Part shown: positions 10,849 through 64,000 of the stretch, one piece after another
Layout: each line of letters begins with the position of its first letter
Position numbering within the stretch: position 1 is the stretch's first letter
Made by a program: the position numbers and the translations under genes
Origin: Marchantia polymorpha subsp. ruderalis
Lineage: Eukaryota > Streptophyta > Marchantiopsida > Marchantiales > Marchantiaceae
DNA length: 64,000 nucleotides
NCBI GenBank assembly: GCA_037833965.1
Contig: AP031355.1
Location: 9,573,501-9,637,500 of the forward strand
Direction: 5' to 3'
The notes under the pieces: model-generated
What the model was told of the DNA's origin: nothing
What the model saw: only the letters and a program-made list of their open reading frames with translations
Database searches by the model: none

Positions 10849-10877
10849 TATAAAATAGTTCCAGGCGTTTTGCCTGG
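10849..10877 (+). promoter_or_regulatory. LTR TATA box and adjacent hairpin
   Basis: TATAAAATA at 10849-10857 is followed after three bases by the inverted repeat CCAGGC-gtttt-GCCTGG (10861-10877). The duplicate is at 12792-12820. Other LTR copies keep the hairpin with a matched C-G to A-T swap (23533-23549, 36050-36066). A core promoter here implies that everything upstream, including the ORF, is U3. Confidence 0.7.
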
Positions 10878-24511: not shown

Positions 24512-25573
24512 CGAGCTCTTTCCAACAAAACTCTAATTGAGTCAAGGCGTCACAAATTGAAAACGTTATGAGGGTTTCACTGTTTCGCCGAAGGCCTTTC
24601 CCTGAAGGGACTTCACCGAAGGCACTTCGCCGAAGACCTTGCTCCAAATGCCTCCTTCCGCACCTTTGCCTACTAGCCATTACACCAATTCCTAATCTTG
24701 CCAAGACTTTCAGAAAACCCCAAGCATAATTTTGCAAGAGCTTAAATCCAAAATTATAACTCTCATAAGGTTAGAAAGACATGTGAGCGCATTTTTTGTG
24801 CTCACAACCTTGGGCACTAGCGCTTTCGTCGCTAGCGCCGCCTTCGTCGATAGGTTTCGCCTTCGGCGTACGGAAGGCCTTCGCCTCTAGGATTCTCCTT
24901 CGGTGGAAAGATGCACCTTCAGCAGAAGAACTCGCCTTCGGCGGAAGAAGAAAGGACAAAGGAGTCGAAGGAAGTCGTACTTTTGCCGCAAGCGCCTTCC
25001 GCGGTAGACACCTTCGGCGGTACGCGAGCGGAGAACAGCATTGGCGGAAATCGGCGGAATCAAGATTGAACGTACATGCGTGGGAGTCCGCGCAACAGCG
25101 GAGCGTGAATTCGAGCGTGTGAATTGGGCCGTTATGCCTCCGCGCCGGCATCGCATTCAAGCAAGCCGCGGCCAGTCCAAGTTTCGAACGTTGGGCGATC
25201 TTGATCGCCGAAGGAAGTAAAGAACTCGCCCGCACTCTCACTCTCGCATTTTCAATTTCGCATTCGTCGGAGCTTGCGACGCGCAACAGAGAGTTTGCAG
25301 TGATCTTGCGGAGAGATTTCTAAGTGAGAGTAGAGTGGGCGGATTTTTGAGAGTGCAGGAGCGCGCAGCAATTGAGTGCGCATAAGTAGAATCTTGCGGG
25401 AGTCTTGTAGAGAATTTGCCGAGAGCTCACGAAACGATTGAGTGAGTACGCGAGAGGTATAGAGAGAAATTGCAGCAAGTTCACCCGAGCTCCCGACGCG
25501 CAGTAGCGAGTGCAGAGGAGTTGCAAGAAGTTCGCGTCAGCATCGAATTGAGCGGGCAAGACCTTGCAAGAAG

Positions 25574-28368: not shown

Positions 28369-28586
28369 CGTGTTGTGTAGCGTAGTGTAGAGTGTAGTGT
28401 GCGTCCTCCGAGTGACCTCCGAGTTGAGCACTTGTTGTATTTCTGGGAGTGACAGTCGCTTGAGAATTCAAACTCCTCAATAGCCTGTTAAAACGTGACA
28501 TTTAATACTCTGTGTGTTGCCTCTGTCCCTGTGGGTTCGACCTCTTGCTGCTATACTGCAGTTTTAGCCTTTGCAGGGTTATTACA

Positions 28587-33000: not shown

Positions 33001-34245
33001 CCGCTGCCGAATGGGAGCAGTGGGTTCTTGATGCTGCTCCTCTTCGGACTCCTCTCTCCATCGGCGCTTCTGCGGCACTCTTGCTGCAGGAGTGTTTCTT
33101 CCTTCGTCCCTCCGCCTTGGCGGAGTAGAAGTTGGCGACTCCTCTGCGTCAGTGTCGACCTCGTTGTCCCGCACATACTTTCCGGGATGGTCGACGGACA
33201 ACGGCGGAAAACAAGCAAGCTCCGCCGCGGTCAAACAATTTCGCTGCCGATAAAAATTGATGAGAAAGGAGAGAGATGATTTAGAGTTCTCCCCTTCTCC
33301 TCAAAAGCGTGCTGTCACATCATTCTGTGCAGGATGCTCGCCCAGTGAATTGGAGCTCCCTCGATGATGCACTCCACAAAAAAGACCTGCCATAATGTGA
33401 TGTAGCAGGCGCGGTGTGGCTGCAATAATTGCAGCAGAGCCGTAGCCACAGTTCGGCGGAAGCGATCCTTGTAATCGCGGGTCTTGTACCCATTCTTAGT
33501 AGACCTCTCCCGCTTGAACAGCTCCACAAATTGCGCCTCGTCCTGCCTAGACACCTTGACGCTCTCACTATCAAAGAGGATGTGCCCTGGGATGCCGGCA
33601 CACCTCCCTAATGCTTGCGCCCAATCTTGGATTGTCCACCGATCGACATGCGGACGCAATCCGCGCGAAGGTGGTCTCTATGGTTCTAGCCACTCGCGCA
33701 CCATATCCGCACAAATGTAGTTCCATCCCCATAGCAAGAAATCGAGCTTTCTTGCTATCAGCCGTTCCTCGTAAGCGCGCAGCCCGTTCTGTGGCAGTCG
33801 GAGCGGCAGCATCCGCAATCGGCTCAGCCTCGACATTGCGTTCTTGGAATTCGCCTGTTCGCTAATTCTCCTTCTGCTCCGCTCGAGCTCCTTGCTTCCT
33901 CGGCAAACTCTAATCTCACTCAATTCCAAATCACGCGCACTCACTTCTCTCTCAATCACCAAGTAAACCTCTGCGCGGCGATGTCGGGAATGCTTAGCAG
34001 CTAGCAGATGGACGCGCGCAGCTCGCACTAGAAAATGGAATCGCGAATTCAAGAATGGGACGCTCTCCGCCTCCCGGTCGAAGGTCATGGTCGGCTCTTG
34101 CCCGTGAGGGTCGAATCAAATGATGGCCGCGCCGGCTCTACGCTAAAACGGTCTCCGCTCTCACGCGCGGCTTCACGCTCCGCCGACGCCGATTTAACTC
34201 ACACGCTCGAATTGGCGAATTTGAACTCCGCGAGCGTACTACGCC
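30029..34245 (-). mobile_element. S3: minus-strand LTR, distal part
   Basis: On the minus strand this ends GGGTTATTACA at 30029. It contains the (GT)7 run (30226-30239), hairpin (30972-30988), TATA (30992-31000) and a broken ORF. At 34245 it is interrupted by S4, and it resumes at 37020. The flank before its end is GTACT (30024-30028). The other end is truncated, so no TSD can be confirmed. Confidence 0.9.
31037..34088 (-). pseudogene. LTR-borne ORF in S3, broken
   Basis: ATG at 34088; close homologue of the intact protein over its whole length. Lesions include TAG at 33678-33680 (Gln position), TGA at 33315-33317 (Arg position), a frameshift in the poly-G/A run near 33290, and TAG at 31238-31240 (Lys position). 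Between these it is open for long distances, notably codons 33061-31238, which cover the Pro/Ser-rich middle and the coiled coil. It belongs to the young subfamily and not to the S1 one. Confidence 0.88.
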
Positions 34246-37019
34246 TGTGGTAACCCACTTTTTGTTTTTTGTCGGAACTTAAATATTTTTGAATAGTAAG
34301 TACCGCGGCAGTAGCTGTAAATAGTAATCGGTACGCGAAACCAGAGGATCGAGGACAGTCAAGGGGTTTTGGGCTTAGGCCACAGTGGGACGCTTGGGAC
34401 GGAACTGGCGGTTCATGCTGCAGGATCCGCTTCGAGCACCTTCGGCGGTAGATCACTCATAACTTTCTCAATTCGTAACGCTTTGAGTTGCTTAGGGTCT
34501 CGTTGGAAAGAACTCGACGCGCTGGTTCTAACGAGCCCAAGAACTTGTGAAACAGATGAGAGGTCACTGAGTTATGAGTGTCGGAAGTTACTGATGGGGG
34601 GGCCTTCGGCGGTAGAGCGACTTTGGCGGTACGCCTTCGGCGGAAGAAGCGCCGGAAGATGCGCCTTGGGCGGTAGACGCCTTCGGTCAACGCCTTCGGG
34701 TCAACGCCTTCGGGGATGCGGGAGAGTGCATTCGGCGGAAGAGTGAATCCCTCATAACTTTCTCAATTCGCAACGCCTTGACTTGGTTAGAGTCTCGTTG
34801 GAAACAACTCGACGCGCTGATTCTAACGAGCCCAAGAACGCCACGAACAGAGGAGAATTCCGGGAGTTATGAAGGTCGCAAGATACTCAGCTTCCCGCCT
34901 GCGCACAGGCGAAGAAAGTTTTGTCCTATGCGCGGACGAAGGAAGTTCGCCTGCGCACAAGCGAAATAGGGTTTTGACGTAGGCGCGAAGTTCGCCTACG
35001 CACAGGCGTTCGCCTGTGCACAGGCGCTTCGGCGTCGGCGAGAAATCTGCCTTCGGCCCTAGAAATGCGCCCTCGGGGTTGGAACTTGTACGGACGCGGA
35101 CGGACGCGGACGCCTCCGAGTAGGCGGCTTGCGACGCGGACGGCCTGTGCACAGGCGGCATGTGCACAGGCAAACGCCTTTGGCGGAAGGGAAAAACCGT
35201 CATAACGTTTTCAATTCTTAACGGTTTGCGTTAGTTAGGGTTTTGTTGGAAAGAGCTCGACACGCTCGTTTCAACGAGCCCAAGAAAGCTTGAAACGGAT
35301 GAGGACTTAGGGAGTTATGACTATCGGAAGATACGTAGACGTTCGCCTTCGGCGGAAGGAGTTCGCCTCCGGCGGGAATTCCGCCTACGCGGAAGGGAGA
35401 TCAACTTTTGTCCGATGCGCGGACGGACGCCTTCGGCGGTTGCAGGCCTTCAGCGAAGTAGTAAAACCGGCATATCGTTTTCAATTCTTAGCGGTTTGAC
35501 TTGATTTGGGTCTCGTTGGAAAGAACTCGACGAGTTGGTTCGAACGAGACCAAGATCTCTTGAAACGGATGAGTCATCAATGAGTTATGAGCGTCGAAAG
35601 CGGCTGTCATGGTTAGGCGTGAGGCCTTCGGCGTTAACAGTTAGAGGGGCCTTCGGCTCAAGGCGGCCCGCGAGTAGGCGGCTTGCGTGTAGGTCGCGTG
35701 GGACCCACAGTCCTCGGATTTTGGAGAAGGAATTTTGGCCTAGGTTCAGAGATCTTGCTGGGCCCATATCTTTGCGATGGAGGGTCGGATGGATTTGAAA
35801 TTTTGTGGGGCCGTTGCTCTCGGCCGGCCACGCATGCCTGCAAATTTTCAGCCTCACATCATGGATGGAAAGGCGTTGGCAGCTCTGTACAGTAGGCTTA
35901 GGATTCAGATTTAGGGTTAGGGTTAGATTTAGGTTGTAAGTTAGAGGGGAAGGCAGCCGCCGACTCCTCAGGTGTGGGATCTGTTGCGGCTCGCACCATG
36001 GCGTAGTGCAGTGTAATGCTAGTTAGGACTTAGAAGGTATAAAGTAGTTCAAGGCGTCTTGCCTTGGGATTTTTCCAGTTTGGGAAGTGCAGATCAGGAA
36101 CTCATTTTCTCTGCGTGTTTATGTCCTTAGTTCTGTCACCATGCAAGAGGAGCTACAACTTGGCGTTCCGCATTTTTTAGCTGAAGGCCTCCGGCCGAAT
36201 GTTCAGAGCTAGTACATTGGTTAGAGACTTGAGTAGTTCGGATCTACACCTGCGGGTGATTGCCGATGCTAAGAGCCAGTGACTAGTTAGATACTTGAAT
36301 AGTTTCGCCCCTACACCTTCGAGTGATTGTTCCTGATTGTACTCCTTCAGGATTTTTCCCCTGAATGCCAAAGTGAAGTTTTGCTACTTCGTGTAAACCT
36401 TGGTTGTAAATTCAGGTTACGCTGCAGCAGGTGCCTTCAGGGTAACCCCTGTAGTATTTCTGGGAATGACAAGTGCCTGAGAATTCAAACTCCTCAATAG
36501 ACTGTTGTTGTGTTATTGGAATGTTTCTCAGTGAGTCCTTCAGTGCGGACCTGTGTTCTCTACGCGTTTTGTGAGTGGAGAGTGTTGTTCACCGCGTATG
36601 AGTGACTTCGATCCGAAGTAGGCAGTCCAAACCGGGTTTCCTACGCTAGCAGCAAGCTAGCGGAAGTGTTGTAAAAGCCGGAGTTGGGAGTCACTACCCG
36701 CAGCTTCGCTGAGTGTACTCCCGAGAGACTTTCCCCCCCTGAAATCTTGAGTAGAGGTCCTAACGGATCTCTGGGTTGTGTTTCTGTAGTTTCAGGTGTG
36801 TGTGTGTGTGTGTGTGTGTGTTACGCTGCACTGTGCGACCTCCGAGTGCGCTCTGAGTGGACACTTGCAGTATTTCTGGGAGTGACAGTTGCCTGAGAAT
36901 TCAAACTCCTCAATAGTCTGTTAAAACGTGACACTTTGTACCCTGTGTGTTCCTCTGTCCCTGTGGGTTCGACCTTTCTACCACTATATTGCAGTTTTAG
37001 CCTTTAGTGGGTTATTACA
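34246..37019 (+). mobile_element. S4: solo LTR nested in S3, ORF-less variant
   Basis: Begins TGTGGTAACCCACTTTTTG at 34246 and ends GGGTTATTACA at 37019. ACGCC flanks it at 34241-34245 and 37020-37024, a perfect TSD. It lacks the ORF entirely. Instead it has four copies of a ~125-bp module and a ~340-bp segment (about 35655-36000) not seen in the other LTRs. The TATA box (36038-36046), hairpin (36050-36066) and (GT)13 (36796-36821) are kept. Confidence 0.94.
34459..35602 (+). repeat. Four dispersed-tandem copies of a ~125-bp LTR module
   Basis: Modules at about 34459-34590, 34753-34876, 35203-35333 and 35472-35602. Each runs CATAAC-TTTCTCAATT, then GTCTCGTTGGAAAGAACTCGACG, AACGAGCCCAAGA, and GAGTTATGA. 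They are separated by 150-350 bp of palindrome-rich spacer. The young LTRs have one such module (for example 6740-6860). Confidence 0.8.
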
Positions 37020-37878
37020 ACGCCGCGGACCTGGGTGCGCAGCGCCGAAGGCGGATTTTCCGCCTTGCGCGGTACACTCGTTCGTACCGCTCCTCAGCCA
37101 ATCCTCCTCTGCCTCGGCGCTTGTCCGCATGTCGGACAAAAGTTCAACTCCCGCCTGTGCGCAGGCGGACTCCTCGGCGGATTCTCCGCCGGTGCGGAAC
37201 TTCACCCGCCTATGCACAGGCGCTCGCCTGCGCGCAGGCGAATTCCGTCCGCGTCGATGCGCTGGCGCGGAAGGTGTTGACCGCGGTCAACAGCCCCCCC
37301 CAGACTGTCCGTTCCTTGTCCCTCCGTCGGCGCGCTCGCCGCCGCAACTCCGCCCGACCACGAGAGCATCCATCCGTCCCGTCCGTACAGTCCGTACGGA
37401 TTTTACTATTCTGGCGGCTCCTTGCTCATCCGCGCCGTTGCGCTGGCGCAGAAGGCGCCGTACAATTTCTACCTCCGAAGGCGCATTTCTAGGGCCGAAG
37501 GCGGATTTCCCGCCGACGCCGGAGCGCCTGTGCGTAGGCAAACTTTGCGCCTACATCAAAACCCTATTTCGCCTGTGCGCAGGCGAATTTCCTTGGTCCG
37601 CGCATAGGACAAAACTTCTTCGCCTGTGCGCAGGCGGAAAGTTGAGTATCTTACAACCTTCATAACTCCCGGAGTCCTCATCCGTTGTTGGCGTTCTTGG
37701 GCTCGTTGGAATCAGCGCGTCGAGTTCTTCCCTACGAGACCCTAACTAAGTCAAGGCGTTTGGGGGTTGACCTAAATATGAAGGATTTCCCTACCGCCAA
37801 GGGCGCAGCGCCGAAGGCGGATTTTGCGCCTTGTGCCGAAGGGATCATACCTTCAGAGCTCGCAGGGAGGGTGGTAAA
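37020..37878 (-). mobile_element. S3 continued (U3 region), 5' end lost
   Basis: Resumes S3 after S4 with the ACGCC duplicate and follows the reverse complement of the U3 region seen at 55960-56880. Homology stops after GAGGGTGGT at about 37878. Some 170 bp of the LTR start are missing, and the LOB-domain ORF begins about 20 bp further on. Confidence 0.85.
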
Positions 37879-51205: not shown

Positions 51206-51654
51206 TGTGGTACCCCACTTTTGGTAATTTTGAGGAAATTAAATCATTTTTGGAAAACTGTACCCTGGCAGCAATGTAAATAGCCTTCGGTGCATCAAAA
51301 CAGAGTGAATTCGGAAGATCGCGGGGATTCTCGAAGGATCTCGTAGAATCTAGGAGTTGGGTGCAGCAGTAAGGACGGGCACCACCCTCCCTTCGAGCTC
51401 TGCAGTTAGGATCCCTACGGCGCAAGGCGTTAAAACCCGCCTTCGGAGCTGCGTCCGCGGCGGTAGGGAATCCTTCATATTTAGATCAACCCCCGGACGC
51501 CTTGACCTAGTTAGGGTCTCGTTGGAAAGAGCTCGACCCACTGATTCCAACGAGCCCAAGAACGCCAACAGCGGATAAGGACTCCGGGAGTTATGAAGGT
51601 TGTAAGATACTCAGCCCTTCGCCTTCGCACAGGCGGAGAAGTTTTGTCCTATGC
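51206..51654 (+). mobile_element. S5: start of another LTR, interrupted
   Basis: TGTGGTACCCCACTTTTGG begins at 51206 in AT-rich DNA and follows the U3 region collinearly to TTTTGTCCTATGC at 51654. There the right-hand element starts. The expected continuation GCGGACGAAGG (compare 6950) is displaced beyond the window, with TATGC as the predicted TSD. Confidence 0.88.
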
Positions 51655-52600
51655 TGTAATAACCCACTAAAGGCTAAAACTGAAATATAGTGGTAGAAAG
51701 GTCGAACCCACAGGGACAGAGGAACACACAGGGTACAAAGTGTCACGTTTTAACAGACTATTGAGGAGTTTGAATTCTCAGGCGACTGTCACTCCCAGAA
51801 ATACTGCAAGTGTCCACTCGGAGCGCACTCGGAGGTCGCACAGTGCAGCGTAACACACACACACACACACACACCTGAAACTACAGAAACACAACCCAGA
51901 GATCCGTTAGGACCTCCACTTCAAGATTTCAGGGGGAAAGTCTCTCACGAGCACACTCGGCAAAGCTGCGGGCAGTGACTTCCAACTCCGGCTTTTACAA
52001 CGCTTCCACTAGCTTGCTGCTAGTGTAGGAAACCCGGTTTGGACTACCTACTTCGGATCTAAGTCACTCAGACGCGGTGAACAACACTCTCAACTCACAA
52101 AACGCGCAGAGAACACAGGTCCACACTGAAGGACTCACTGTGAAACATTCCAGTAACATAACAACAGTCTATTGAAGAGTTTGAATTCTCAGGCACTTGT
52201 CATTCCCAGAAATACTACAGGGGTTACCCTCAAGGCACCTGCTGTAGCGTAACCTGAATTTACAACCAAGGCTTACACGAAGTAGCAAAACTTCACTTTG
52301 GCATTCAGGGGAAAAATCCCAAGGAGTACAATCAGAAAGAAACACTCGAAGGTGTAGGGGCGAAACTGTTCAAGTATCTAACTAGTCACTGGCTCTGAGC
52401 ATCGGCAGTCACCCGCAGGTGCAGATCCGAACTACTCAAGTCTCTAACCAATGTACTAGCTCTGAACATTCGGCCGCAGGCCTTCAGCTACAAAATGCGG
52501 AACGCTAAGTTGTAACTCCTCGTGCGTGGTGACAGAACTCAAGGACACAAACACGCAAAGGAAATGGGTTCCTGATCTGCACTTCTGATGGGAAAGAACC

Positions 52601-52629
52601 CCAGGCAAAACGCCTGGAACTATTTTATA
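52601..52629 (-). promoter_or_regulatory. LTR TATA box and hairpin, reference copy
   Basis: On the minus strand TATAAAATA (52629-52621) precedes CCAGGC-gtttt-GCCTGG (52617-52601). Same arrangement as at 10849-10877. It lies downstream of the ORF stop, so the ORF is not transcribed from this promoter within the same LTR. Confidence 0.7.
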
Positions 52630-52665
52630 CCTTCTAAATCCTACCTAGCACTACACTGCACTACG

Positions 52666-55600
52666 CTACACGCCTGCACGGAACCACACTACACTACACT
52701 CCGCGGAACCTGTACTACGTCTCCTGCGCGGCCGACTGCCGCGCACTAACTCCCTACCCTGCCAATCTTCCGCTCGACTGCGCAGTCCCAACCGCTGCAA
52801 CGCCGCGGACACCTCCCCTTCGAGGGCGGACATGGTATCCTGTGCCTTCGACAGAAAGGCATCGAGCTTCTTTGCTACCTTCCGCCGACTCCTACTGTCG
52901 CCTGACAACAACCCGGCTGCGCGCAATTCAAACTCACGCAGTGTGAGTTTCTCCTGCGCCTTCACTTCCCAGTGGGCGTAGCCCTTGAGACAGTGGGCGA
53001 CTCGCCTCGCCGTCTCCACCTTCGTGCGATCCGCCTCCTTCCTGCGATCCTCTTCAATTATCACTAATTGCGATTCGGCTTCAGCACGTTGCGCTCTCAA
53101 TTCGCCACACTCTGACTGTAACCTGCGGATTAACTCTTCATCCGCCTGCCGTGCGAGCTGACATTGTTCCAACAACCGCGTCTGTCGCACGAGCTCCTCT
53201 GACAAAATCCGATTCTGGGCCTGCTCAGAAATGAGTGCTTCCTTGACCTTCACCTGCTCCTTGGTGAGCTCGCCCAGTTTCTCATCCTTCATCTTCTCGG
53301 AGTGCTTGTAGAATTTCTGATTAAGCTTGTACTGACCCCACAAGCACGCATGCTTCTCCTTCAATTCCTTCAACTCCTGGTCCACTCTAGCTAATAGCTT
53401 GCTAGTGTGGACTTTAGTGCGAGTCCGCCTGCGCACTAACTCGATGTAAGATCCCGGCTGGAGTGGGTCGGCGTATTTATCGACCTTGCGATCCAAGTAC
53501 CGCAGCAACGGAATCACCTGCTCAGAGAGCGCCGCCGCCGGCGCTCCAACAATTTCCTCCTCCTCCTCCTCGGTGTCTTCTGCTCCTGACATTTCTTCCG
53601 TGGAGCCTCCGTCGTCATCATCCGAGTGGAGAATTTCAGTCGCCATTGATTGCGTCGGCGACTGCCCCGAGTGGGGCTGCACGTCATCAACGTGTGCTGC
53701 CTGCGAAGGCACGGCTGCAGCCTCGCTGCTCGTCGCCAAAATGTCTAAGGCGGAAAGCGAATGTACCCGTGCGGCATCCCCGTCGCTCGCTTGTTGATTG
53801 TCTACCGCATCCTCTCTGCCGCCGTCGTCCGCCGCCGAAGGCGATCCAGCGGAGGGTGACTGCGCGGGGTTTGATTGCGCATCGCGCATCGAGATTTCAT
53901 CCCGCGGACAGTCACTCCGCTCCTTCGTCTGTTGCTGCTCCCTTGATCGGTCCGTGGGGGCTGTGCCCGGCCCGTGCGCAGGCGCATTTGCCGGCGCCTT
54001 GTCCGCCGCAGGCGTAGCGCCGCGGACATCTATCGCCGAAGGCGACATGGCCGGGGGCCGCACGCCCGATGTTCCTTGGCCTATAGGCCCTACCGCCGAA
54101 GGCGCATCTATCGGCGGACTTCCCGCCGATGGTGCGGCCTCCGCACGCTCTCTGCTCGTATCTCCTCGGCTCGAAGGCCCTGGCGCCGAATACGCAAATT
54201 GCGGCGCGTGGTGCGCCGGAGGGTCTGGCCCCGAGGGCCGGTGTCTCGTAGGCGGTTCTTCCGCCGGCTCCTTCCCCTTCCTACGTTGGAACGGGGGTGA
54301 TTCTTGCCTGTGCACAGGCGGCACGTGTGGAGGTGTCCTGTGCACAGGCGACCTGTGCACAGGTGAGCGCCTGTGCACAGGCGGACTGCTCCTTCCCACG
54401 CGTAAGCGTAGATCCACGTCCACTTGTGTTCGCCGGTCCGCGGAGGCTCGTCCGTCCGCGGAGGTTCGCCTGTGCGCAAACGGAACATCTGTCCGCATCG
54501 CACGTGGTAACTCCGGAGGCCCTTGGCCCGTAGGCGGCCTCTCTCCCGTCGAGGTTGCAGCGTGGCCCGTTGCTCCTGCGGTCGTCCGCGCTTCCTTATG
54601 CCTCTCTGGCGACGCACTTCCTTTCTCCGTCGCAATCGTCGCCGTGTCTGCACTGTCGGCTGGTAACACTAGTCTGCGTGCCTTCTGCTTCGGCCGGCTG
54701 TATGGCTCGCACAGCGGCCGCGGTCGAATGGGAGCAGAGGGTTCTTGATGCTGCTCCTCTTCAGACTCTTCCCTCCATCGCCGCTTCCGCGGCACTCGTG
54801 CTGCAGGAGTGTGTCTCCCTTCGTCCCTCCGTCTTGATGGGGTAGAAGTCGGTGACTCCTCTGCATCAGTGTCGACCTCGTTCTCCCGCACATACTTCCC
54901 GGGATGGTCGATGGACAATGGCGGAAAATGTTCAAGCTCCGCCGCTGTCAAACAATTCCGCTGTCGATAAAAATTGATGAGGAAAGGAGAAAGATGGTTT
55001 AGAGTTCCCCCCTTCTCCTCAAACGCGTGCTGTCGCATCACCCTGTGCAGGATGCTCGCCCAGTGAATTGGAGTTCCCTCGATGACGCACTCCACAAAAG
55101 AGACCTGCCACAATGTGATGTAGCAGGCGCGGTGCGGCTGCAGTAATTGCATCAGCGCCGCGGACAAAGTCCGGCGAAATCGATCCTTGTAATCACGGGT
55201 CCTGTACCCATTCTTGGTAGACCTCCCGGTCTTGAACAGCTCCACAAATTGCGCCTCTTCTTGCTTGGTCACCTTGATGCTCTCACTGTCGAAAAGGAGA
55301 TGCCCTGGCATGCCAGCACATCTTCCCAACGCCTGCGCCCAATCTTGGACTGTCCACCGGTCAACATGCGGACGCAATCCGCGCGAGGGTGGTCCCTGTG
55401 GCTCTAGCCACTCGCGCACCATATTCGCACAGATGTAATTCCATCCCCATAGCAAGAAATCGAGCTTTCTTGCTATTAAGCGCTCCTCAAAAGCGCGCAG
55501 CCCGTTCTGCGGTAGGCGAAGTGGCACCATCCGCAATCTGCTCGGTCTCGTCATTGCGTTCCTGGGGTTCGCTCGCCCGCTCATTCTACTTCCGCACCGC

Positions 55601-55806
55601 CCGGGTTTCTTTCTCTCTCGGCAAACTCTAATCGCCCTCAATTCCAAATCACGCGCACTCACTTCTCCCTCAATCAACAAGAAATCTCCTGTGCGACGAC
55701 GTCGAGAATGTTCCGCAGCCAGCAGATGGATGCGCGCAGCGCGCACAAGAGATTGGAATCGCGAATTCAAGAATGGGACGTTCTCCGCCGCCCGGTCGAA
55801 GGTCAT
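52666..55806 (-). CDS. Intact 1,046-aa LTR-encoded protein, function unknown
   Basis: ATG at 55806 in ACCATGA context; TAG at 52666-52668. Residues 1-90 are basic. A conserved Trp/His-rich block (~95-300) includes W-G-W-N-Y-I-C-A-N, L-L-Q-P-H-R-A-C-Y-I-T-L-W-Q and G-T-P-I-H-W-A-S-I-L-H. This block is faintly reminiscent of plant transposon-associated domains of the Transposase_32 kind, a weak resemblance. About 314-735 is Pro/Ser/Arg/Ala-rich with APSA-type repeats. An acidic run (~738-757) precedes a long charged coiled coil (~775-1010). No CCHC knuckle, protease or polymerase is seen. The layout (folded N-part, disordered middle, coiled coil) would suit a structural or Gag-like protein, which is inference. 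It is the only undamaged complete copy here. Confidence 0.8.
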   Translation of the reverse strand: MTFDRAAENVPFLNSRFQSLVRAARIHLLAAEHSRRRRTGDFLLIEGEVSARDLELRAIRVCRERKKPGRCGSRMSGRANPRNAMTRPSRLRMVPLRLPQNGLRAFEERLIARKLDFLLWGWNYICANMVREWLEPQGPPSRGLRPHVDRWTVQDWAQALGRCAGMPGHLLFDSESIKVTKQEEAQFVELFKTGRSTKNGYRTRDYKDRFRRTLSAALMQLLQPHRACYITLWQVSFVECVIEGTPIHWASILHRVMRQHAFEEKGGTLNHLSPFLINFYRQRNCLTAAELEHFPPLSIDHPGKYVRENEVDTDAEESPTSTPSRRRDEGRHTPAARVPRKRRWREESEEEQHQEPSAPIRPRPLCEPYSRPKQKARRLVLPADSADTATIATEKGSASPERHKEARTTAGATGHAATSTGERPPTGQGPPELPRAMRTDVPFAHRRTSADGRASADRRTQVDVDLRLRVGRSSPPVHRRSPVHRSPVHRTPPHVPPVHRQESPPFQRRKGKEPAEEPPTRHRPSGPDPPAHHAPQFAYSAPGPSSRGDTSRERAEAAPSAGSPPIDAPSAVGPIGQGTSGVRPPAMSPSAIDVRGATPAADKAPANAPAHGPGTAPTDRSREQQQTKERSDCPRDEISMRDAQSNPAQSPSAGSPSAADDGGREDAVDNQQASDGDAARVHSLSALDILATSSEAAAVPSQAAHVDDVQPHSGQSPTQSMATEILHSDDDDGGSTEEMSGAEDTEEEEEEIVGAPAAALSEQVIPLLRYLDRKVDKYADPLQPGSYIELVRRRTRTKVHTSKLLARVDQELKELKEKHACLWGQYKLNQKFYKHSEKMKDEKLGELTKEQVKVKEALISEQAQNRILSEELVRQTRLLEQCQLARQADEELIRRLQSECGELRAQRAEAESQLVIIEEDRRKEADRTKVETARRVAHCLKGYAHWEVKAQEKLTLREFELRAAGLLSGDSRSRRKVAKKLDAFLSKAQDTMSALEGEVSAALQRLGLRSRAEDWQGRELVRGSRPRRRRSTGSAECSVVWFRAGV

Positions 55807-57052
55807 GGTCGGCCCTTGCTCGTGAAGAACGTCTCACTTGATGGCCGCGCCGGCTGTACGCTGGAACGGTCTTCGCTCTCACGCGCGGCTTCACGCTCCG
55901 CCGTCGTCGATTAAACTCTCACGCTCGAATTGGCGGATTTGAACTCCGCGAGCGTATTACCCTGCGGACATGGGGGCGTAGCGCCGAAGGCGAGTTTTCC
56001 GCCTTGCGCGGTACACTTGTTCGTACCGCCCCTCGGCCAATCCCCCTCTGCCTTGACGCGTGTGTCCGCATGTCGGACAAAAGTTCAACTCCTGCCTGTG
56101 CGCAGGCAGGAGCCTCGGCGGATTCTCCGCCGGCACGGAACTTCATCCTCCTGTGCACAGGCGTTCGCTTGTGCGCAGGCGAATTCCGTGCGCTACGTCG
56201 CGCTGGCGCGGAAGGCGTTGACCGTGGTCAGCCGTCTCCGTCCAGTCTGTCCGTTCCTTGTCTCTTCGTCGGCGCTTCCGCCGCCGCAACTCCGTCCGTC
56301 CAAGAGCGCATCCACCCTTCCCTTCCGCATGGTCCGTACCGATTTGATTACTCTGGCGGCTCTTCCGACGTACGCGGCGCCGCGCTGGCGCGGAAGGCGC
56401 CGTACACTTTCTACCTCACAAGGCGCATTTCTAGGGCCCAAGGCGGATTTTCCGCCAACGCCGAAGCGCCTGTGCACAGGCGAGCGCCTGTGCGTAGGCG
56501 GACTTCGCGCCTCCCCTAACCCTACTTCGCCTGTGCACAGGCGAATGCCTTCGTCCGCGCATAGGACAAAACTTGATTCCCCCTTCCGCGTAGGCGGAAT
56601 TCGCGCCGGTGGCGAACTCTTTCCGCCGTAGGCGACCGCCTCCGTTTCTTCCAATAGCGATAACTCCCTAAGTCCTCATCCGTTCCAAGCGTTCTTGGGC
56701 TCGTTGGAATCAGTGCGTTGAGCTCTTTCCAACGGGATCCTAACTTGGTCAAGGCGCCCGAGGGTTGACCTAATTATGGAGGGTTTCCCTACAGCCGCGG
56801 ACGCAACCTCCGAAGGCGGGTTTTGCGCCTTGCGCCGTAGAGATCCTAACTGCAGAGCTCGCAGGGAGGGTGGTGCCTGTCCTTACTGCTGCACCCCAAA
56901 TCCCAGATTCTACAAGATCCCTCGGGAATCCCCGCGATCTTCCGGATTCACTCTGTTTTGATGTACCGAAGGCTATTTACAATGCTGCCAGGGTACAGTT
57001 TTCCAAAAATGTTTTAATTTTCTCAAAATTGCCAAAAGTGGGGTACCACATG

Positions 57053-57063
57053 CCCCCCTCCTC
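57053..57063 (-). other. Polypurine tract, right element
   Basis: GAGGAGGGGGG on the minus strand, two bases before the LTR start at 57050; identical to 6447-6457. Confidence 0.85.
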
Positions 57064-57087: not shown

Positions 57088-59075
57088 TCACATGTGGTTT
57101 TTCTTCAACCGCCACCCGTTCACTCGGGTGCCTAACAAATCGCTGGCCAGGTCCGCAAGTTGGATGGATCCATTCCGGAAGACTTCGACAACCCTGTAAG
57201 GTCCCATCCACCTTAGGTGCAGTTTGCCTGGGAATCTGGCATGCCTGCTGTCGTAGAGCAATGCCAAATCACCCGCCTGCAGTAGTACCGGTTTGATCTT
57301 TTTATCGTATCTCTCCTTTCGGCGGAGCTGGATTTTCCTGGTGCGATCTTCGGCGTCTCGTCTCCTCTCATCCAGCAGCGTGACCTCCTGTAACCTGTAG
57401 AGCTGACTCTCCTCTGCGCCCATCCTCTGCAAATCCAACGTTCGTTGGGTGGGTACTTCAAATTCGATCGGGAGGATCGGGTGTTGCCCATACACCAGAA
57501 AGTATGGTGTCTGTTTGGTCGTGATCTTCTCAGCTGTGCGGTACGCCCATAGAGCGGCTGCTAGCTTCGTATCCCAGTCGTGAGCGTGATTCACCGTGAC
57601 CTTGAGTAGTATTTTACACAGCAGACCATTGGACTTCTCCGTCAGTCCATTTGCCTTGGGATTGTATGGAGTAGTCTTATGGTGCTTGATGTGGAAATAC
57701 CGTGTCAGATCTTCGATGATCTGATTCAGAAAATGCGTGCCCCGGTCGCTGACTAGCTCTAAGGGACATCCGTAGCGTGTGATGATCGACTCAAACAAGA
57801 ATGCTGCCACTGTGGTAGCATCATCCCTTCTGGTGGCCCTGGCCTCTACCATTTTGGTGGCGTAGTCCGTTGCTACCAGAATGTAGCGCCTTCGTGTACT
57901 TCTAGTCACTGGTTGTATCGGCCCTACAAAGTCAATACCCCACTTTTCGAAAGGTGCTAGAGGCATGATGGGAGTCAGGGCCAGCGTGTTGTAGGCGTCG
58001 GTCTCCCCGTCCTCTGGCAACTGTCGCACTTGCGGATGTAATCGAGAACATCCTTAAACATGGTCGGCCACCAATACCCCGCATTTAGGATCTTTGTGAC
58101 CGTGTTCCTGGTGGCATAGTGTCCACCCGCCTCCTCTGTATGCATCGCACTCACTATTCTTGGTACCTCTGATTCCTCCAGGCATCTGCATAAGCGCTCA
58201 TCTGCCATCTTCTTGAACAAAACCCCCTGCTGGAGTTGGTACGGGCCTGCCTTATGAATAAAGACAGTTCGTTGTTCCAAATCCATGTCTTCGGGACACT
58301 GGAGGGTTAGCAGATATCGATACAGGTCGGCATAGCGGGACTCATGTCCTGCAGACAACTGAAATAACTCTTCATCTGGAAAATCGTCCACCAATTCCTC
58401 CTCTGTCGGCTGGGTCCATAATCGGGACAAGTAATCCGCATTTTCGTGGTGCACCCCTTTCCTGGTCTGGACTGTGTAGGTGAACTCTTGTAGTAACAAC
58501 ACCCACCTGGCGATCCGACCGGATAGGTCGGCTTTCTTGACTAGGTGTTGCAATGCGTAGTGGTCCACATGGAACACAAACTCGTAGCAGATTAGGTAGT
58601 GACGGAACTTCTTACAGGAGTACACCATCCCCAACGCTTCTCTCTCCGTCGTGGTGTACTTCCGCTCTGCTAGAGACAGCTGTCGGCTCGCGAAGTAGAT
58701 CGGGTAGTCCTTTTTGTTGTCATCCTTTTGACTCAGTACTACACCGATGGCGAATGCCGAGGTGTCAACGTAAACATGGAATGGTCGATTCCAGTCTGGA
58801 CTCCTTAGTACGGGAGCAGTCGTGAGTTTCGCTTTAAGAGTCTCAAATGCTGACTGCTGGTTCGCACCCCAAGCATAAGGCTCGTCCTTCTTCAACAACT
58901 TGGTCAGGTCCGCCGCCAGTATTGCATACAGGTGTATGAATCTTCGGTAGTAGCCCACATGACCCAGGAATGCTCGCAGCTCTCTTAGATTCGTGGGTGG
59001 CTCAAGCTCGAGTATAACCTTGACCTTCTCGATGTCCACCGCAATGCCGTCTGCCGAGACCCAACAAGATCCCAC
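57088..59075 (-). pseudogene. RT tail, RNase H and integrase, one frameshift
   Basis: Reverse-strand equivalent of 4434-6422, with the same RNase H and DDE integrase motifs. It is open from 59075 to about 57975. There a run of four C is reduced to three relative to the other copy (TGGCCCTGACT), shifting the frame just after the integrase zinc region. The catalytic core and C-terminus continue in the frame 58029-57088. This lesion is private to this copy. Confidence 0.88.
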
Positions 59076-59919
59076 TAGTCATAAAGAAAAAGCACTTCTC
59101 GGGATGCAGTGATAAACTGCTCTCTCTACATTTATCGAAGGTCTGCTTCAAGTGACTTAGGTGTTCAGACCGCTTCCCAAAGACACAGAAGTCATCTATG
59201 AATATTTCCAGGAACTTCCTCAGTTGTTCCTGAAAGATATTGGTCATCATCCGTTGAAAGGTGGCAGGCGCGTTGCACAGACCGAAGGGCATCTTGTGGT
59301 ATGCGTAAGTTCCCCAGTCGGTTGTGAACGTAGTTTTATCCTTGTCCTGTTCACGGATAGACACCTGATTGTAACCTGAGAACCCATCCAGGAAGCTATA
59401 ACATTCATGTCCTGCGACATGGTCTAGAATGGCATCCGTGAATGGTAACGGGTGATGATCCTTGCGTGTTGCTGCATTCAACTTCCGGAAATCCTGACAC
59501 ACTCGTATCTTACCCGTCAACTTCTTGGGTACGATAACAATCGGCGACACCCACTCACTGCTGAGCACAGGGTAAATAATACCAGCGCTCAAGTACTTAT
59601 CTATCTCCTCTTTAACTAGCAAGGAGTATTTTGGGTTGAGGCGATACTGGCGCTGTCGTATGGGTACTTAGTCGTCCAGTAAATCGATACGGTGCTCCCC
59701 ATACCGTGCAGGTATCCCCTTCATGTCTTCGATCTTCCAGGCGAAGACGTCGACATAATGGCTAAGGAATGCCTGTACTTTCCTTAGCTCATCTCCTCTC
59801 ACTGCGCTTGATACCTTCAAGCGCTTGCCGGGACTGAGTTGTACTTCGTGACAGTCACTAGGGTCGACAATGCCCTCGGTGTGACTCGTCTCACTCCTTC
59901 CCAGTCCCACAGTTAATTG
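59002..59919 (-). pseudogene. Reverse transcriptase with a stop and the shared frameshift
   Basis: Continues after the leaky TAG. TAA at 59668-59670 replaces a Ser codon before the RT core (private to this copy). The RT motifs (Q-D-F-R-K-L-N, F-L-D-G-F, F-I-D-D) are intact from 59622 onward. The frame then ends with the same shift at the G-I-L-L-G site as in the left copy (near 59055-59065). Confidence 0.87.
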
Positions 59920-59922
59920 CTA
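59914..59922 (-). promoter_or_regulatory. Leaky-stop context UAG CAA UUA, right copy
   Basis: Identical nonamer and position to 3587-3595. Its preservation in both copies, while other stops are private, is consistent with a functional stop. Confidence 0.65.
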
Positions 59923-60741
59923 TTCGTCTTCTGGCTGAATAGCTTCCGGCTCTTCTTCTTCTCCCACCGAACAGCAGGCAACGAATCCCACGAAATAATC
60001 GGATTCGGTACCACTGGAATCCGATCGCGCGGTCGACTCACTGTCCTCGCCCGATGTGTAACCTGCACTTGTCGATGGGGTCTCTCCTTCGTGTCTGACC
60101 CTATTCCAGGGCACCGTAATGGTTTTGGTCGGTTCCGAAGGATGGGGAAACTTAAGGCGATGCCTTCGCCAATCACATCTGACTTGTGCGCCATATAGCC
60201 ATGGTCGCCCGAGCAGAACGTCATAGCCCTGCTTCATCATCGGTTGAAGGATGATATACGTCAACCGAAAGTCCGCACCCCCGATGATTGTCTTGACATT
60301 GCGCAGCATACCTGCAGGCATTCTCCGCGTCTGATCCGCTAATCTCAACACACGCTTCGAGGGTTCGTATTGACTGAACCCCAAGGCTCTCGCTGTATCC
60401 TCCGTCATTATGTTGACTCCTGATCCAGAGTCGATTGGCACCCTGCGTACACAACACCCTGCTATTTCCACATCGATCTCTGGTGGCCCTTGGTCTTCGC
60501 TCTCCACTTGATATACTTGAGAGGATGTGGATGCGCGCGGCTTCCGCGGATGCCGTAGCGAAAGCATCAACATTCTCCGATACGTCTTATTGTCCTCCAA
60601 GAGCTGCTTGAACGTGATGTTCAATTTTGGACTCTCGAGATCTTCGACCAAGTCATACTGGGCGCGTTGGGTCGCCGAGGTCGGCGACGCTCTGCGAGGT
60701 TCCACGGTGGCTGCCAACTTCGCCCCAAGGAAGGATGTCAA
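59920..60741 (-). CDS. Aspartic protease region of pol, right copy
   Basis: About 274 codons, same motifs as 2768-3589 (D-S-G at ~104-106), and undamaged. It differs from the left copy by a few residues near the N-terminus (about 33-40). There is no ATG. The 5' side abuts an LTR in the opposite orientation at 60743, so its natural upstream gag is not visible. Confidence 0.85.
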   Translation of the reverse strand: MTSFLGAKLAATVEPRRASPTSATQRAQYDLVEDLESPKLNITFKQLLEDNKTYRRMLMLSLRHPRKPRASTSSQVYQVESEDQGPPEIDVEIAGCCVRRVPIDSGSGVNIMTEDTARALGFSQYEPSKRVLRLADQTRRMPAGMLRNVKTIIGGADFRLTYIILQPMMKQGYDVLLGRPWLYGAQVRCDWRRHRLKFPHPSEPTKTITVPWNRVRHEGETPSTSAGYTSGEDSESTARSDSSGTESDYFVGFVACCSVGEEEEPEAIQPEDE

Positions 60742-60742
60742 G

Positions 60743-63700
60743 TGTGGTACCCCACTTTTGGCAATTTTGAGGAAATTAAAACATTTTTGAAAAACTGTAC
60801 CCTGGCAGCATTGTAAATAGCCTTCGGTACATCAAAACAGAGTGAATCCGGAAGATCGCGGGGATTCTCGAGGGATCTTGTAGAATCTGGGATTTGGGAT
60901 GCCGCAGCAAGGACAGGCACCACCCTCCCTGCGAGCTCCGCAGTTAGGATCTCTACGGCGCAAGGCGCAAAACCCGCCTTCGGAGGCTGCGTCCGCGGCT
61001 GTAGGGAAACCCCCGTAATTAGGTAAACCCTTGGGCGCCTTGACCAAGTTAGGGTCCCGTTGGAAAGAGCTCGACGCGCTGATTCTAACGAGCCCAAGAA
61101 CGCTTGGAACGGACGAGGACTTAGGGAGTTATCGCTACTGGAAGAAACGGAGGCGGTCGCCTACGGCGGAAGGAGTTCGCCACCGGCGCGAATTCCGCCT
61201 ACGCGGAAGGGGGATTCAAGTTTTGTCCTATGCACGGACGAAGGCGTTCGCCTGTGCACAAGCGAAGTAGGGTTAGGGAAGGCGCGAAGTCCGCCTACGC
61301 ACAGCCGTTCGCCTGTGCACAGGCACTTCGGCGTCGGCGGAAAATCCGCCTTGGGCCCTAGAAATGCGCCTTGTGAGGTAGAAAGTGTACGGCGCCTTCC
61401 GCGCCAGCGCAGCGCCGCGTATGTCGGAAGAGCCGCCAGAGTAATCCAATAGGTACGGACCGTGCGGACGGCACGGGTGGATGCGCTCTTGGACGGACGA
61501 AGTTGCGGCGGCGGAAGCGCCGACGAAGAGACAAGGAACGGACAGACTGGACGGAGACGGCTGACCACGGTCAACGCCTTCCGCGCCAGCGCAGCGCCGC
61601 GGACGGAATTCGCCTGCGCACAGGCGAACGCCTGTGCACAGGAGGATGTTCAAGTTCCGCGCCGGCGGAGAATCCGCCGAGGCCCCTGCCTGCGCACAGG
61701 CAGGAGTTGAATTTTTGTCCGACATGCGGACACACGCGTCAAGGCAGCGGGAGATTGGCCGAGGGGCGGTACGAACAAGTGTACCGCGCAAGGCGGAAAA
61801 CTCGCCTTCGGCGCTACGCCCCCATGTCCGCAGGGCGACACGCTCGCGGAGTTCAAATCCGCCAATTCGAGCGTGAGAGTTTAATCGACGACGGCGGAGC
61901 GTGAAGCCGCGCGTGAGAGCGAAGACCGTTCCAGCGTACAGCCGGCGCGGCCATCAAGTGAGACGTTCTTCACGACCAAGAGTCGACCATGACCTTCGAC
62001 CGGGCGGCGGAGAACGTCCCATTCTTGAATTCGCGATTCCAATCTCTTGTGCGCGCTGCGCGCATCCATCTGCTGGCTGCGGACCATTCTCGACGTCGTC
62101 ACACAGGAGATTTCTTGTTGATTGAGGGAGAAGTGAGTGCGCGTGATTTGGAATTGAGAGCGATTAGAGTTTGCCGAGAGAGAAAGAAACGCGGACAGTG
62201 CGGAAGTAGAATGAGCGGGCGAGCGAACCCCAGGAACGCAATGACGAGACCGAGCAGATTGCGGATGGTGCCACTTCGCCTGCCGCAGAACGGGCTGCGC
62301 GCTTTCGAAGAGCGCTTAATAGCAAGAAAGCTCGATTTCTTGCTATGGGGATGGAATTACATCTGTGCGAATATGGTGCGCGAGTGGCTAGAGCCACAGG
62401 GACCACCCTCGCGCGGATTGCGTCCGCATGTCGACCGGTGGACAGTCCAAGATTGGGCGCAGGCGTTGGGAAGATGTGCTGGCATGCCAGGGCATCTCCT
62501 TTTCGACAGTGAGAGCATCAAGGTGACCAAGCAAGAGGAGGCGCAATTTGTGGAGCTGTTCAAGACCGGGAGGTCAACCAAGAATGGGTACAGGACCCGT
62601 GATTACAAGGATCGATTTCGCCGGACTTTGTCCGCGGCGCTGATGCAATTACTGCAGCCGCACCGCGCCTGCTACATCACATTGTGGCAAGTCTCTTTTG
62701 TGGAGTGCGTCATCGAGGGAACTCCAATTCACTGGGCGAGCATCCTGCACAGGGTGATGCGACAGCACGCGTTTGAGGAGAAGGGGGGAACTCTAAACCA
62801 TCTTTCTCCTTTCCTCATCAATTTTTATCGACAGCGGAATTGTTTGACATCGGCGGAGCTTGAACATTTTCCGCCATTGTCCGTCGACCATCCCGGGAAG
62901 TATGTGCGGGAGAACGAGGTCGATACTGATGCAGAGGAGTCACCGACTTCGACCCCATCAAGACGGAGGGACGAAGGGAGACACACTCCTGCAGCGCGAG
63001 TGCCGCGGAAGCGGCGATGGAGGGAAGAGTCTGAAGAGGAGCAGCATCAAGAACCCTCTGCTCCCATTCGACCGCGGCCGCTGTGCGAGCCATACAGCCG
63101 GCCGAAGCAGAAGGCACGCAGACTGGTGTTACCAGCTGACAGTGCAGACACGGCGACGATTGCGACGGAGAGAGGAAGTGCGTCGCCAGAGAGGCGAGAG
63201 GAAGCGCGGACGACCGCAGGAGCAACGGGCCACGCTGCAACCTCGTCGGGAGAGAGGCCGCCTACGGGCCAGGGGCCTCCGGAGTTACCACGTGCGATGC
63301 GGACAGATGTTCCGTTTGCGCACAGGCGAACCTCCGCGGACGGACGAGCCTCCGCGGACCGGCGAACACAAGTGGACGTGGATCTACGCTTACGCGTGGG
63401 AAGGAGCAGTCCGCCTGTGCACAGGCGCTCGCCTGTGCACAGGTCACCTGTGCACAGGCAAGAATCACCCCCGTTCCAACGTAGGAAGGGGAAGGAGCCG
63501 GCGGAAGAACCGCCTACGAGACACCGGCCCTCGGGGCCAGACCCTCCGGCGCACCACGCGCCGCAATTTGCGCCTTCGGCGCCAGGGCCTTCGAGCCGAG
63601 GAGATACGAGCAGAGAGCGTGCGGAGGCCGCACCATCGGCGGGAAGTCCGCCGATAGATGCGCCTTCGGCGGTAGGGCCTATAGGCCAAGGAACATCGGG

Positions 63701-64000
63701 CGTGCGGCCCCCGGCCATGTCGCCTTCGGCGATAGATGTCCGCGGCGCTACGCCTGCGGCGGACAAGGCGCCGGCAAATGCGCCTGCGCACGGGCCGGGC
63801 ACGGCCCCCACGGACCGATCAAGGGAGCAGCAGACGATGGAGCGGAGCGACTGTCCGCGGGATGAAATCTCGATGCGCGATGCGCAATCCAACCCCGCGC
63901 AGCCACCCTCCGCTCAATCGCCTTCGGCAACGGACGACGGCGACAGAGAGAATGCGGTAGGCAATCAACCAGCGAACGACGGGGATGCCGCTCGGGTACA
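60743..64000 (+). mobile_element. Inverted LTR upstream of pol, right locus (runs off window)
   Basis: TGTGGTACCCCACTTTTGG begins at 60743, directly against the protease region read on the other strand. It continues collinearly with the reference LTR through U3 and about 670 codons of the ORF to the window end. It mirrors 592-2758 at the left locus. The junction base composition differs slightly: 8 bp (CGGCCAGA) present at the left locus are absent here. Confidence 0.9.
61989..64000 (+). CDS. LTR-borne ORF, open to the window edge (partial)
   Basis: ATG at 61989 in ACCATGA context. Open for about 670 codons through the conserved block and most of the Pro/Ser/Arg-rich middle, with an in-frame codon deletion near 63830 and no stop seen. 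The acidic and coiled-coil parts would lie outside the window. With 52666-55806 it is one of two copies without a visible lesion, though incomplete here. Confidence 0.8.
   Translation, partial: MTFDRAAENVPFLNSRFQSLVRAARIHLLAADHSRRRHTGDFLLIEGEVSARDLELRAIRVCRERKKRGQCGSRMSGRANPRNAMTRPSRLRMVPLRLPQNGLRAFEERLIARKLDFLLWGWNYICANMVREWLEPQGPPSRGLRPHVDRWTVQDWAQALGRCAGMPGHLLFDSESIKVTKQEEAQFVELFKTGRSTKNGYRTRDYKDRFRRTLSAALMQLLQPHRACYITLWQVSFVECVIEGTPIHWASILHRVMRQHAFEEKGGTLNHLSPFLINFYRQRNCLTSAELEHFPPLSVDHPGKYVRENEVDTDAEESPTSTPSRRRDEGRHTPAARVPRKRRWREESEEEQHQEPSAPIRPRPLCEPYSRPKQKARRLVLPADSADTATIATERGSASPERREEARTTAGATGHAATSSGERPPTGQGPPELPRAMRTDVPFAHRRTSADGRASADRRTQVDVDLRLRVGRSSPPVHRRSPVHRSPVHRQESPPFQRRKGKEPAEEPPTRHRPSGPDPPAHHAPQFAPSAPGPSSRGDTSRERAEAAPSAGSPPIDAPSAVGPIGQGTSGVRPPAMSPSAIDVRGATPAADKAPANAPAHGPGTAPTDRSREQQTMERSDCPRDEISMRDAQSNPAQPPSAQSPSATDDGDRENAVGNQPANDGDAARV

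What the first reader, a model, noticed from the sequence alone, without database searches (positions are those of the whole stretch)
51655..57050. A 5.4-kb plant LTR that encodes its own 1,046-aa protein
The ORF lies wholly between the LTR 5' terminus (next to the purine tract) and the LTR TATA box, so it is in U3 and on the sense strand. In genomic RNA it would sit at the extreme 3' end, after integrase, analogous in position to an LTR-encoded accessory gene. Two copies show no lesion (one intact, one open to the window edge) and five more are recognisable. The protein has a conserved N-terminal block, a disordered middle and a long coiled coil, with no known enzymatic motif. This is the strongest candidate for an undescribed system in the window.
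Basis: partly seen in the sequence, partly recalled or inferred. Interest (0 to 1): 0.9.

Follow-up and report, generated by a model that had tools for sequence, protein, structure and literature searches.

The report
Liverwort retrotransposon whose LTR encodes protein
A common jumping element of the liverwort Marchantia carries, inside each of its long end repeats, a whole gene for a large protein that natural selection has kept, so the gene can stay behind even when the rest of the element is lost; what the protein does is not yet known.

Summary
The window is Marchantia polymorpha. 51655-57050 is an exact 5,396-bp LTR (TG...CA) preceded by a polypurine tract. A 1,046-aa ORF (52666-55806, sense) lies wholly in U3, upstream of the TATA box. 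In the genome the same LTR is followed by a primer-binding site, or stands alone between perfect 5-bp target duplications with the ORF inside (13 of 30 best loci; two ORF-bearing solo LTRs in the window). A canonical 943-aa gag-protease ORF lies in the internal domain, so this is no misplaced gag. 39 of the 44 scored copies have no internal stop. dN/dS is 0-0.19 for residues 101-320 in 11 copies not chosen by ORF score, 0.37-0.62 in the middle (11 of 12; one 1.94), 0-0.49 in the C-terminal part. No convincing Pfam or PDB relative; all named homologues are M. polymorpha. Most likely a trans-acting, probably nuclear, accessory protein with its own U3-derived mRNA, placed like MMTV sag. Location and selection are shown; expression and function are inferred. 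New variant of a known kind.

The parts
51655..57050 (-). 3' LTR (5,396 bp) of element X_B, encoding the ORF
   Evidence: TG...CA ends, PPT upstream; partner 5' LTR L003 with shared TSD GCATA, 27 of 5390 substitutions apart
52666..55806 (-). ORF of 1,046 codons wholly in U3 (real start could be Met75 or Met85)
   Evidence: purifying selection
52623..52629 (-). TATA box candidate of the LTR promoter, about 40 nt after the ORF stop
   Evidence: sequence; in one 20-nt bin in 17 of 30 copies (bins under 15 copies were not printed)
57051..57063 (-). polypurine tract
   Evidence: 1,142 PPT-LTR junctions in the genome at up to 2 mismatches, ORF-less LTR type included
57088..58029 (-). integrase part of pol of X_B (rve)
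57975..59075 (-). RNase H and integrase zinc-binding part of pol of X_B
59002..59622 (-). reverse transcriptase part of pol of X_B
59920..60741 (-). end of gag and protease of X_B, cut at 60743 by the nested element
60743..64000 (+). 5' LTR (part) of nested element Y_B; PBS and gag follow outside the window
   Evidence: L033; TSD TCAAG both sides
61989..63998 (+). second open copy of the ORF, in Y_B, running off the window
6460..11826 (+). 3' LTR of element X_A; ORF copy 7716-10809 with lesions
2759..6459 (+). pol of X_A, gag cut off by Y_A
592..2758 (-). start of the LTR of Y_A, with 313 uninterrupted ORF codons (592-1530)
1..591 (+). end of the 3' LTR of element Z, lying inside Y_A
11827..13760 (+). 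LTR tail interrupted by X_A, with the ORF end (11826-12752)
18934..28586 (+). old diverged solo LTR F (TSD AAAAT) with degenerate ORF 25553-28401; D is nested in it
21172..24511 (+). solo LTR D (TSD CGAGC), internally deleted, ORF from residue 276 on, with lesions
30029..37875 (-). LTR copy C with broken ORF 31043-34088, interrupted by S1
34246..37019 (+). solo LTR S1 without the ORF (2,774 bp, TSD ACGCC)
51206..51654 (+). LTR head into which X_B inserted

Best explanation
This is a Ty3/gypsy-type LTR retrotransposon of Marchantia polymorpha (LTR about 5.4 kb; internal domain about 5.8 kb with PBS, gag-protease ORF, RT-RNaseH-integrase, PPT) whose U3 has taken in a third gene. Shown: the gene lies inside the LTR, so an insertion bears it at both ends, and it is present in solo LTRs, where the body is gone; its protein has evolved under purifying selection. 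Inferred: it is translated from a short mRNA of its own that starts in the last ~160 nt before the ORF (no upstream ATG there; a CCAAT close by) and ends in R, or from a subgenomic 3' RNA; the soluble basic protein (conserved helical N-terminal domain, disordered middle, long helical tail) probably enters the nucleus and acts in trans on the family's RNA or chromatin as a regulatory or anti-silencing factor. Certainty by step: LTR location 0.98; selected protein 0.95; own U3 mRNA 0.5; nuclear trans-acting regulator 0.4.
For: LTR: TG...CA and 5-bp TSD in 3 window solo LTRs, two of them with ORF remains, and in 13 of 30 genome loci; PPT before and/or PBS after 14 others. Separate gag: Retrotrans_gag 1.1e-12 and zinc knuckles. 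Selection: 39 of 44 scored copies without internal stop (the 44 best of 13,023 first-look candidates); pN/pS 0.25 over 30 copies and 0.07 in residues 101-320, with overall pS 0.032 close to noncoding LTR diversity 0.032-0.043; frame controls; 0-0.19 in residues 101-320 of 11 copies not chosen by ORF score. Age: remains of the ORF also lie in the diverged solo LTR F and in a PBS-bearing LTR of 72-87% identity, L044; an annotated protein joins a related integrase to a 59%-identical stretch of the ORF. Soluble and basic: highest 19-aa hydropathy 1.14, pI 9.4. CCAAT in one 20-nt bin before the ORF in 30 of 30 copies; nearest upstream ATG 165 nt away in 30 of 30.
Against: No transcript or peptide evidence. 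No TATA upstream of the ORF reached 15 of 30 copies in a bin. The nuclear role rests on basic clusters only; both basic motifs (my own regular expressions) were present in 24 of 58 homologues that reach that region. The C-terminal helix has no heptad signal in a simple autocorrelation. An ORF-less sister LTR is numerous (388 and 499 sites), so the ORF is not needed in cis; this fits trans action but also dispensability. Only 1 of 6 hand-picked 5' LTRs has an uninterrupted ORF. Two segment ratios exceeded 1, on few changes.
Confidence: 0.6

Rival explanations
1. [quoted passage not shown] the element's PPT/LTR boundary moved upstream so that the LTR swallowed it.
For: Same place after integrase; sense extra ORFs after pol are known in plants (PMC7264820 section 4). 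A resemblance of the motif order to Athila ORF-1 is my recollection only.
Against: No match of these families for 23 homologues at E up to 10 and 91 at E up to 0.01; none at the ORF loci in genome searches with PF04195 and PF20167, which had no good positive control; no transmembrane-like stretch; TRP28 ORFs are antisense.
Confidence: 0.2
2. It is a second structural protein of the particle (assembly or packaging), made from a 3' subgenomic RNA.
For: Long predicted helical tail and disordered proline- and alanine-rich middle would suit assembly.
Against: A Gag with capsid and zinc-knuckle domains exists; ORF-less sister elements are numerous.
Confidence: 0.15
3. A captured host gene or passenger carried along without function.
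For: 5 of 6 hand-picked 5' LTRs have a broken or cut ORF.
Against: dN/dS well below 1 with frame controls. The named hits are all uncharacterised M. polymorpha proteins; whether any is a host gene was not tested.
Confidence: 0.03
4. The true LTR is shorter and the ORF is an internal gag put there by nested insertion.
For: The region is heavily nested and the right LTR is inverted relative to pol.
Against: Solo LTRs with TSD contain the ORF; PPT-LTR-PBS units; gag is separate.
Confidence: 0.01

Closest known systems
MMTV sag/naf ORF in the U3 of the LTR (PMC9412291, passages seen)
   Same: An accessory ORF in U3; MMTV uses a U3 promoter P2 for it
   Different: Vertebrate retrovirus; its U3 protein is much shorter (recalled); relation of the proteins not tested; here a plant Ty3/gypsy element and 1,046 aa
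Retand/Grande/RIRE2 antisense extra ORFs, TRP28 in Retand (PMC11963269: abstract, passages, Discussion)
   Same: Extra ORF of unknown function downstream of pol, suspected regulatory
   Different: Antisense, in the internal region, PF04195; here sense, in the LTR, no PF04195 match; recently active Retand elements reported only in eudicots and Liliopsida (abstract)
Sense env-like extra ORFs of plant elements (PMC7264820: abstract, section 4)
   Same: Sense, after pol
   Different: Between pol and the 3' LTR, some with transmembrane domains; here inside the LTR and without a hydrophobic stretch
Non-chromovirus Ty3/gypsy clades Phygy and Selgy of a moss and a lycophyte (PMC6317226, passages)
   Same: Ty3/gypsy elements of non-seed plants; no chromodomain or additional RNase H found here
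   Different: Those are rather short with the polyprotein filling the internal part, Phygy prefers NCGN sites; here 5.4-kb LTRs with a gene and varied TSDs

Membership tests
Ty3/gypsy LTR retrotransposon | LTRs TG...CA, 5-bp TSD, PBS, PPT | tested here: met
Ty3/gypsy LTR retrotransposon | gag, protease, RT, RNase H, integrase in that order | tested here: met
   gag-protease-RT-RNaseH in L032, protease to integrase in the window
Tat clade | additional RNase H domain | tested here: not met
   only RT_RNaseH and RT_RNaseH_2 found
Chromovirus | integrase chromodomain | tested here: not met
   no chromodomain hit on the integrase ORF at E up to 1
Phygy | NCGN insertion preference | tested here: not met
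   varied TSDs of 13 solo LTRs
Phygy | RT phylogenetic position | not tested
   no reference RT sequences at hand
TRP28 (PF04195) extra ORF | PF04195 domain | tested here: not met
   hmmscan of 23 and 91 homologues; genome search gave 3 weak matches, none at the listed ORF loci, and its control rang only weakly in E. coli
TRP28 (PF04195) extra ORF | antisense between pol and 3' LTR | tested here: not met
   sense, inside U3
Transposase_32 (PF20167) | PF20167 domain | tested here: inconclusive
   no hit among homologues; in the genome search no control rang
env-like ORF | transmembrane segment | tested here: not met
   highest 19-aa hydropathy 1.14 in the ORF, 0.78-1.39 in 7 homologues, (hydropathy only)
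LTR-encoded accessory gene (MMTV sag type) | ORF within U3 | tested here: met
LTR-encoded accessory gene (MMTV sag type) | own U3 promoter and mRNA | not testable with these tools
   no transcript data; sequence hints only
Gag | capsid domain or zinc knuckle | tested here: not met
   none in the ORF; both in the separate gag

The most novel reading that the evidence does not exclude
A plant retrotransposon family turned its LTR into a self-contained gene cassette: each ORF-bearing LTR, including solo LTRs left by recombination, can express a trans-acting nuclear protein that keeps the family and its ORF-less satellite elements active or unsilenced, so that the host's usual way of disarming elements (LTR-LTR deletion) leaves the helper gene in place.
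Probability: 0.3. Interest if true: 0.9.

Novelty: new variant of a known kind. Interest (0 to 1): 0.74.

Why it matters
Extra genes of plant LTR elements are known between pol and the 3' LTR. A plant gene inside the LTR did not turn up in my searches (listings only, open-licence PMC papers, for most of which I saw title and abstract start). The place has consequences: the gene is present at both ends of an insertion, outlives deletion of the body (11 of the 13 solo LTRs among the best-scoring loci have no internal stop in the ORF; a set favouring intact copies), and could act in trans on ORF-less satellites. The family is large (6,401 LTR ends at up to 2 mismatches, ORF-less type included) in a model plant, so expression and function can be tested directly.

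Tried and rejected
Inverted LTR arrangement: it first looked like pol flanked by inverted repeats, shared by two copies (26 shared sites against 1 and 1). Rejected: the right LTR is followed by PBS and gag, and TSDs show nesting for B. For A the far end of Y_A was not seen; nesting there is inferred.

ORF as gag: rejected. Env-like: no hydrophobic stretch. TRP28 and Transposase_32: no match, with weak controls. Single low-scoring Pfam matches of some homologues, such as Extensin_1 1.9e-4 and CENP-K 1.8e-3, SCNM1_acidic 1.3e-3 and SR-25 2.4e-3, I take as compositional or helical matches; they hit 1 or 2 members each. The best PDB profile match had E 0.71. Predicted folds were poor: full ORF mean pLDDT 47 with about 811-930 at 80-95; N-domain 50; its PDB fold search gave nothing below E 5.7, meaningless at that confidence. 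Viral and prokaryote collections gave no relative. Homologue searches scored only about 8,000 candidates each, so absence outside Marchantia is weak evidence.

Biases: the 30 loci were ranked by protein score, which favours conserved copies, and are not independent (same flanks in L001/L002 and L008/L009; array L019-L022); hence the other set. Results against the reading: B against dirA gave 1.28 in the C-terminal part (8 changes); one middle segment gave 1.94 (L034b); in pairs with few changes wrong frames sometimes also gave low ratios. Junction counts include the ORF-less LTR type, because it differs by only one or two bases in those patterns.
Full report
What was checked. The LTR claimed at 51655-57050 starts TGTGGTACCCCAC and ends GTGGGTTATTACA on the minus strand. 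It is preceded by GAGGAGGGGGGCA, a polypurine tract, and by integrase, RNase H, RT and protease reading frames on the same strand. The 1,046-codon ORF at 52666-55806 lies at LTR positions 1245-4385; a TATA motif follows its stop by about 40 nt. So the ORF is in U3, sense. This matches the finding. The window holds 8 copies of the ORF.

Organism. About 8,000 candidates were scored in each search. The window's assembly has 9 contigs and 241.47 Mb, which agrees with the 9-chromosome, 241-Mb Tak-1 v7.1 entry in PMC13078153 (passages). The link to that assembly is my inference.

Is it really an LTR? Three solo LTRs in the window have perfect 5-bp duplications: S1 34246-37019 (ACGCC), D 21172-24511 (CGAGC), F 18934-28586 (AAAAT); D and F contain remains of the ORF. 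Of the 30 genome loci cut out for the best ORF matches, 13 are solo LTRs with a perfect 5-bp duplication, 7 have the PPT upstream, 3 the PBS downstream, 4 have both (a tandem array on C4, period 11.2 kb by the places), 1 has neither, and in 2 an end was not found. The PBS begins TGGCGCCGCTGCCGGGG; that this is a tRNA-Asp type is recalled. Genome counts: 1,142 PPT-LTR junctions (up to 2 mismatches), 1,250 LTR-PBS junctions (up to 3), 6,401 LTR ends (up to 2), 2,295 ORF N-blocks (up to 3), with 0 matches of the reversed control pattern each time. The first three counts include the ORF-less LTR type described below.

The apparent inverted LTRs. In both pol-bearing elements of the window, pol is flanked by LTRs in opposite orientation. 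Outside the window the right-hand LTR is followed by PBS and gag. It belongs to an element nested in the first, with TCAAG on both sides and the host element's sequence resuming beyond. The true 5' LTR of the element in the finding is L003, with TSD GCATA shared with 51655. The two LTRs differ by 27 of 5,390 aligned bases, and their ORFs by 13 bases and 9 residues; both ORFs are without internal stop. The left side of the window is a mirror image; there the far end was not seen.

Not a gag. Locus L032 shows the 5' internal domain: PBS, then a 943-aa ORF with Retrotrans_gag (1.1e-12), two zinc-knuckle matches and protease, then RT-RNaseH. No gag, Transposase_28 or Transposase_32 match was found for the ORF or its homologues. 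In the genome, PF04195 gave 3 matches at E 0.9-9.8, none at a listed ORF locus, and PF20167 none; no control rang and only E. coli, below the cut-off.

Selection. Nei-Gojobori ratios against the intact copy, residues 101-320 / 321-740 / 741-1046: copy C 0.14 / 0.64 / 0.30; copy F (dS above 1.3) 0.23 / 0.33 / 0.27; edge copy 0.08 / 0.43. For the diverged pairs (B-C, B-D, C-D, B-F) the sense frame and the antisense frame that mirrors its third positions are low in residues 101-320 and 741-1046, the other four frames about 0.9-3; in the middle part the contrast is weak (B-C 0.64 against 0.80-1.17), and in pairs with few changes other frames were sometimes low too. Thirty genome copies: pN/pS 0.25 overall, 0.07 in residues 101-320; overall pS 0.032 against noncoding LTR diversity of 0.043 and 0.032. 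Because those copies were ranked by protein score, I also used 12 copies or parts not chosen that way: neighbours of the window, the flank of the C4 array, and six 5' LTRs that I picked by hand among the first 100 listed of 1,250 PBS sites. Residues 101-320 gave 0-0.19 in the 11 that cover them; the middle 0.37-0.62 in 11 of 12 and 1.94 in one; the C-terminal part 0-0.49 in 11. Of the six 5' LTRs one has an uninterrupted ORF. 39 of the 44 scored copies (of 13,023 first-look candidates) have no internal stop. The first 74 residues are less constrained (0.44) and several homologue models start near Met85, so the true start is uncertain.

Age of the arrangement. Remains of the ORF also lie inside a PBS-bearing LTR of 72-87% identity (L044) and inside the old solo LTR F. 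An annotated protein, P0081, joins an integrase related to this one (142 of 205 aligned columns identical, 36 being gaps) to a stretch 59% identical to the ORF, which suggests the same order at another locus. Diverged copies found with P0006 are mostly broken.

Protein. 117 kDa, pI 9.4, no hydrophobic stretch; helices in the N-terminal domain at low confidence, a disordered proline- and alanine-rich middle, and a long helix at about 803-967, best predicted at 811-930. A simple autocorrelation does not show heptads, so 'coiled coil' is not shown. Basic clusters follow the N-domain (RKRRWR at 340); both basic motifs occur in 24 of 58 homologues reaching that point.

How it may be expressed. Upstream of the ORF the LTR has eight ATGs in the window copy, the last 165 nt before the ORF in 30 of 30 copies. 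A CCAAT lies in one 20-nt bin before the ORF in 30 of 30, at 128 nt in the five copies printed. No TATA upstream reached 15 of 30 copies in a bin. An mRNA starting within the last 160 nt would have the ORF as its first reading frame. MMTV expresses its U3 gene from a U3 promoter (PMC9412291, passages). This step is inference.

Satellites without the ORF. S1-type LTRs lack the ORF but share LTR ends, and in L046 also PPT and PBS. The S1-specific 42-mer occurs 388 times, PPT plus S1-type head 499 times. One array unit on C9 (L046) has a 2.4-kb LTR and a 636-bp internal part with PBS, traces of the gag start and PPT; its longest ATG ORF is 194 aa. So the ORF is not needed in cis; this suits a trans-acting protein but does not prove it.

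Literature. Plant extra ORFs between pol and the 3' LTR are reviewed in PMC7264820 (abstract and section 4 read; a search of its text for phrases such as 'within the LTR' found none) and PMC11963269 (abstract, passages, Discussion). Searches for LTR-encoded ORFs in plants showed none in their listings (I did not open those papers otherwise, apart from passages of PMC13078153 and PMC10714607 and of PMC9412291); the phrase search returned only the MMTV paper. Other papers were seen as passages only: PMC9985172, PMC10714607, PMC13078153, PMC6317226. Most subscription journals and all bioRxiv preprints are not covered.

Verdict. Observation confirmed, interpretation supported. The place of the gene and selection on its protein are shown; own mRNA, nuclear action and benefit to the family are inference. 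New variant of a known kind.

Noticed in passing
34246-37019; G000:C9:4499074-4511433; L046: An ORF-less sister LTR family (388 and 499 genome sites by two patterns) with tandem units of about 3.08 kb; the unit read has a 2.4-kb LTR and a 636-bp internal part with PBS, traces of the gag start and PPT: a likely non-autonomous satellite.
   Followed up: partly
L019-L022 (C4 about 20.82-20.86 Mb); C2 about 31.345-31.379 Mb: Tandem LTR-internal arrays with a period of about 11.2 kb; on C4 neighbouring elements share one LTR (PPT before, PBS after).
   Followed up: partly
2758 and 60743: Two elements lie inserted, mirror-wise, at sites 8 bp apart in the gag-protease region of two different copies; coincidence, hotspot or duplication is open.
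   Followed up: partly
41311-47375: Array of about 200-bp repeats in which ARAGORN calls six tRNA-Gly (TCC) genes.
   Followed up: no
P0023: A Marchantia protein with the same N-terminal domain but a different C-terminal part, perhaps tail exchange or a joined gene model.
   Followed up: no
L031 1-6630: A copy in which only 362 bp of the internal domain lie between a cut LTR and the next LTR.
   Followed up: no
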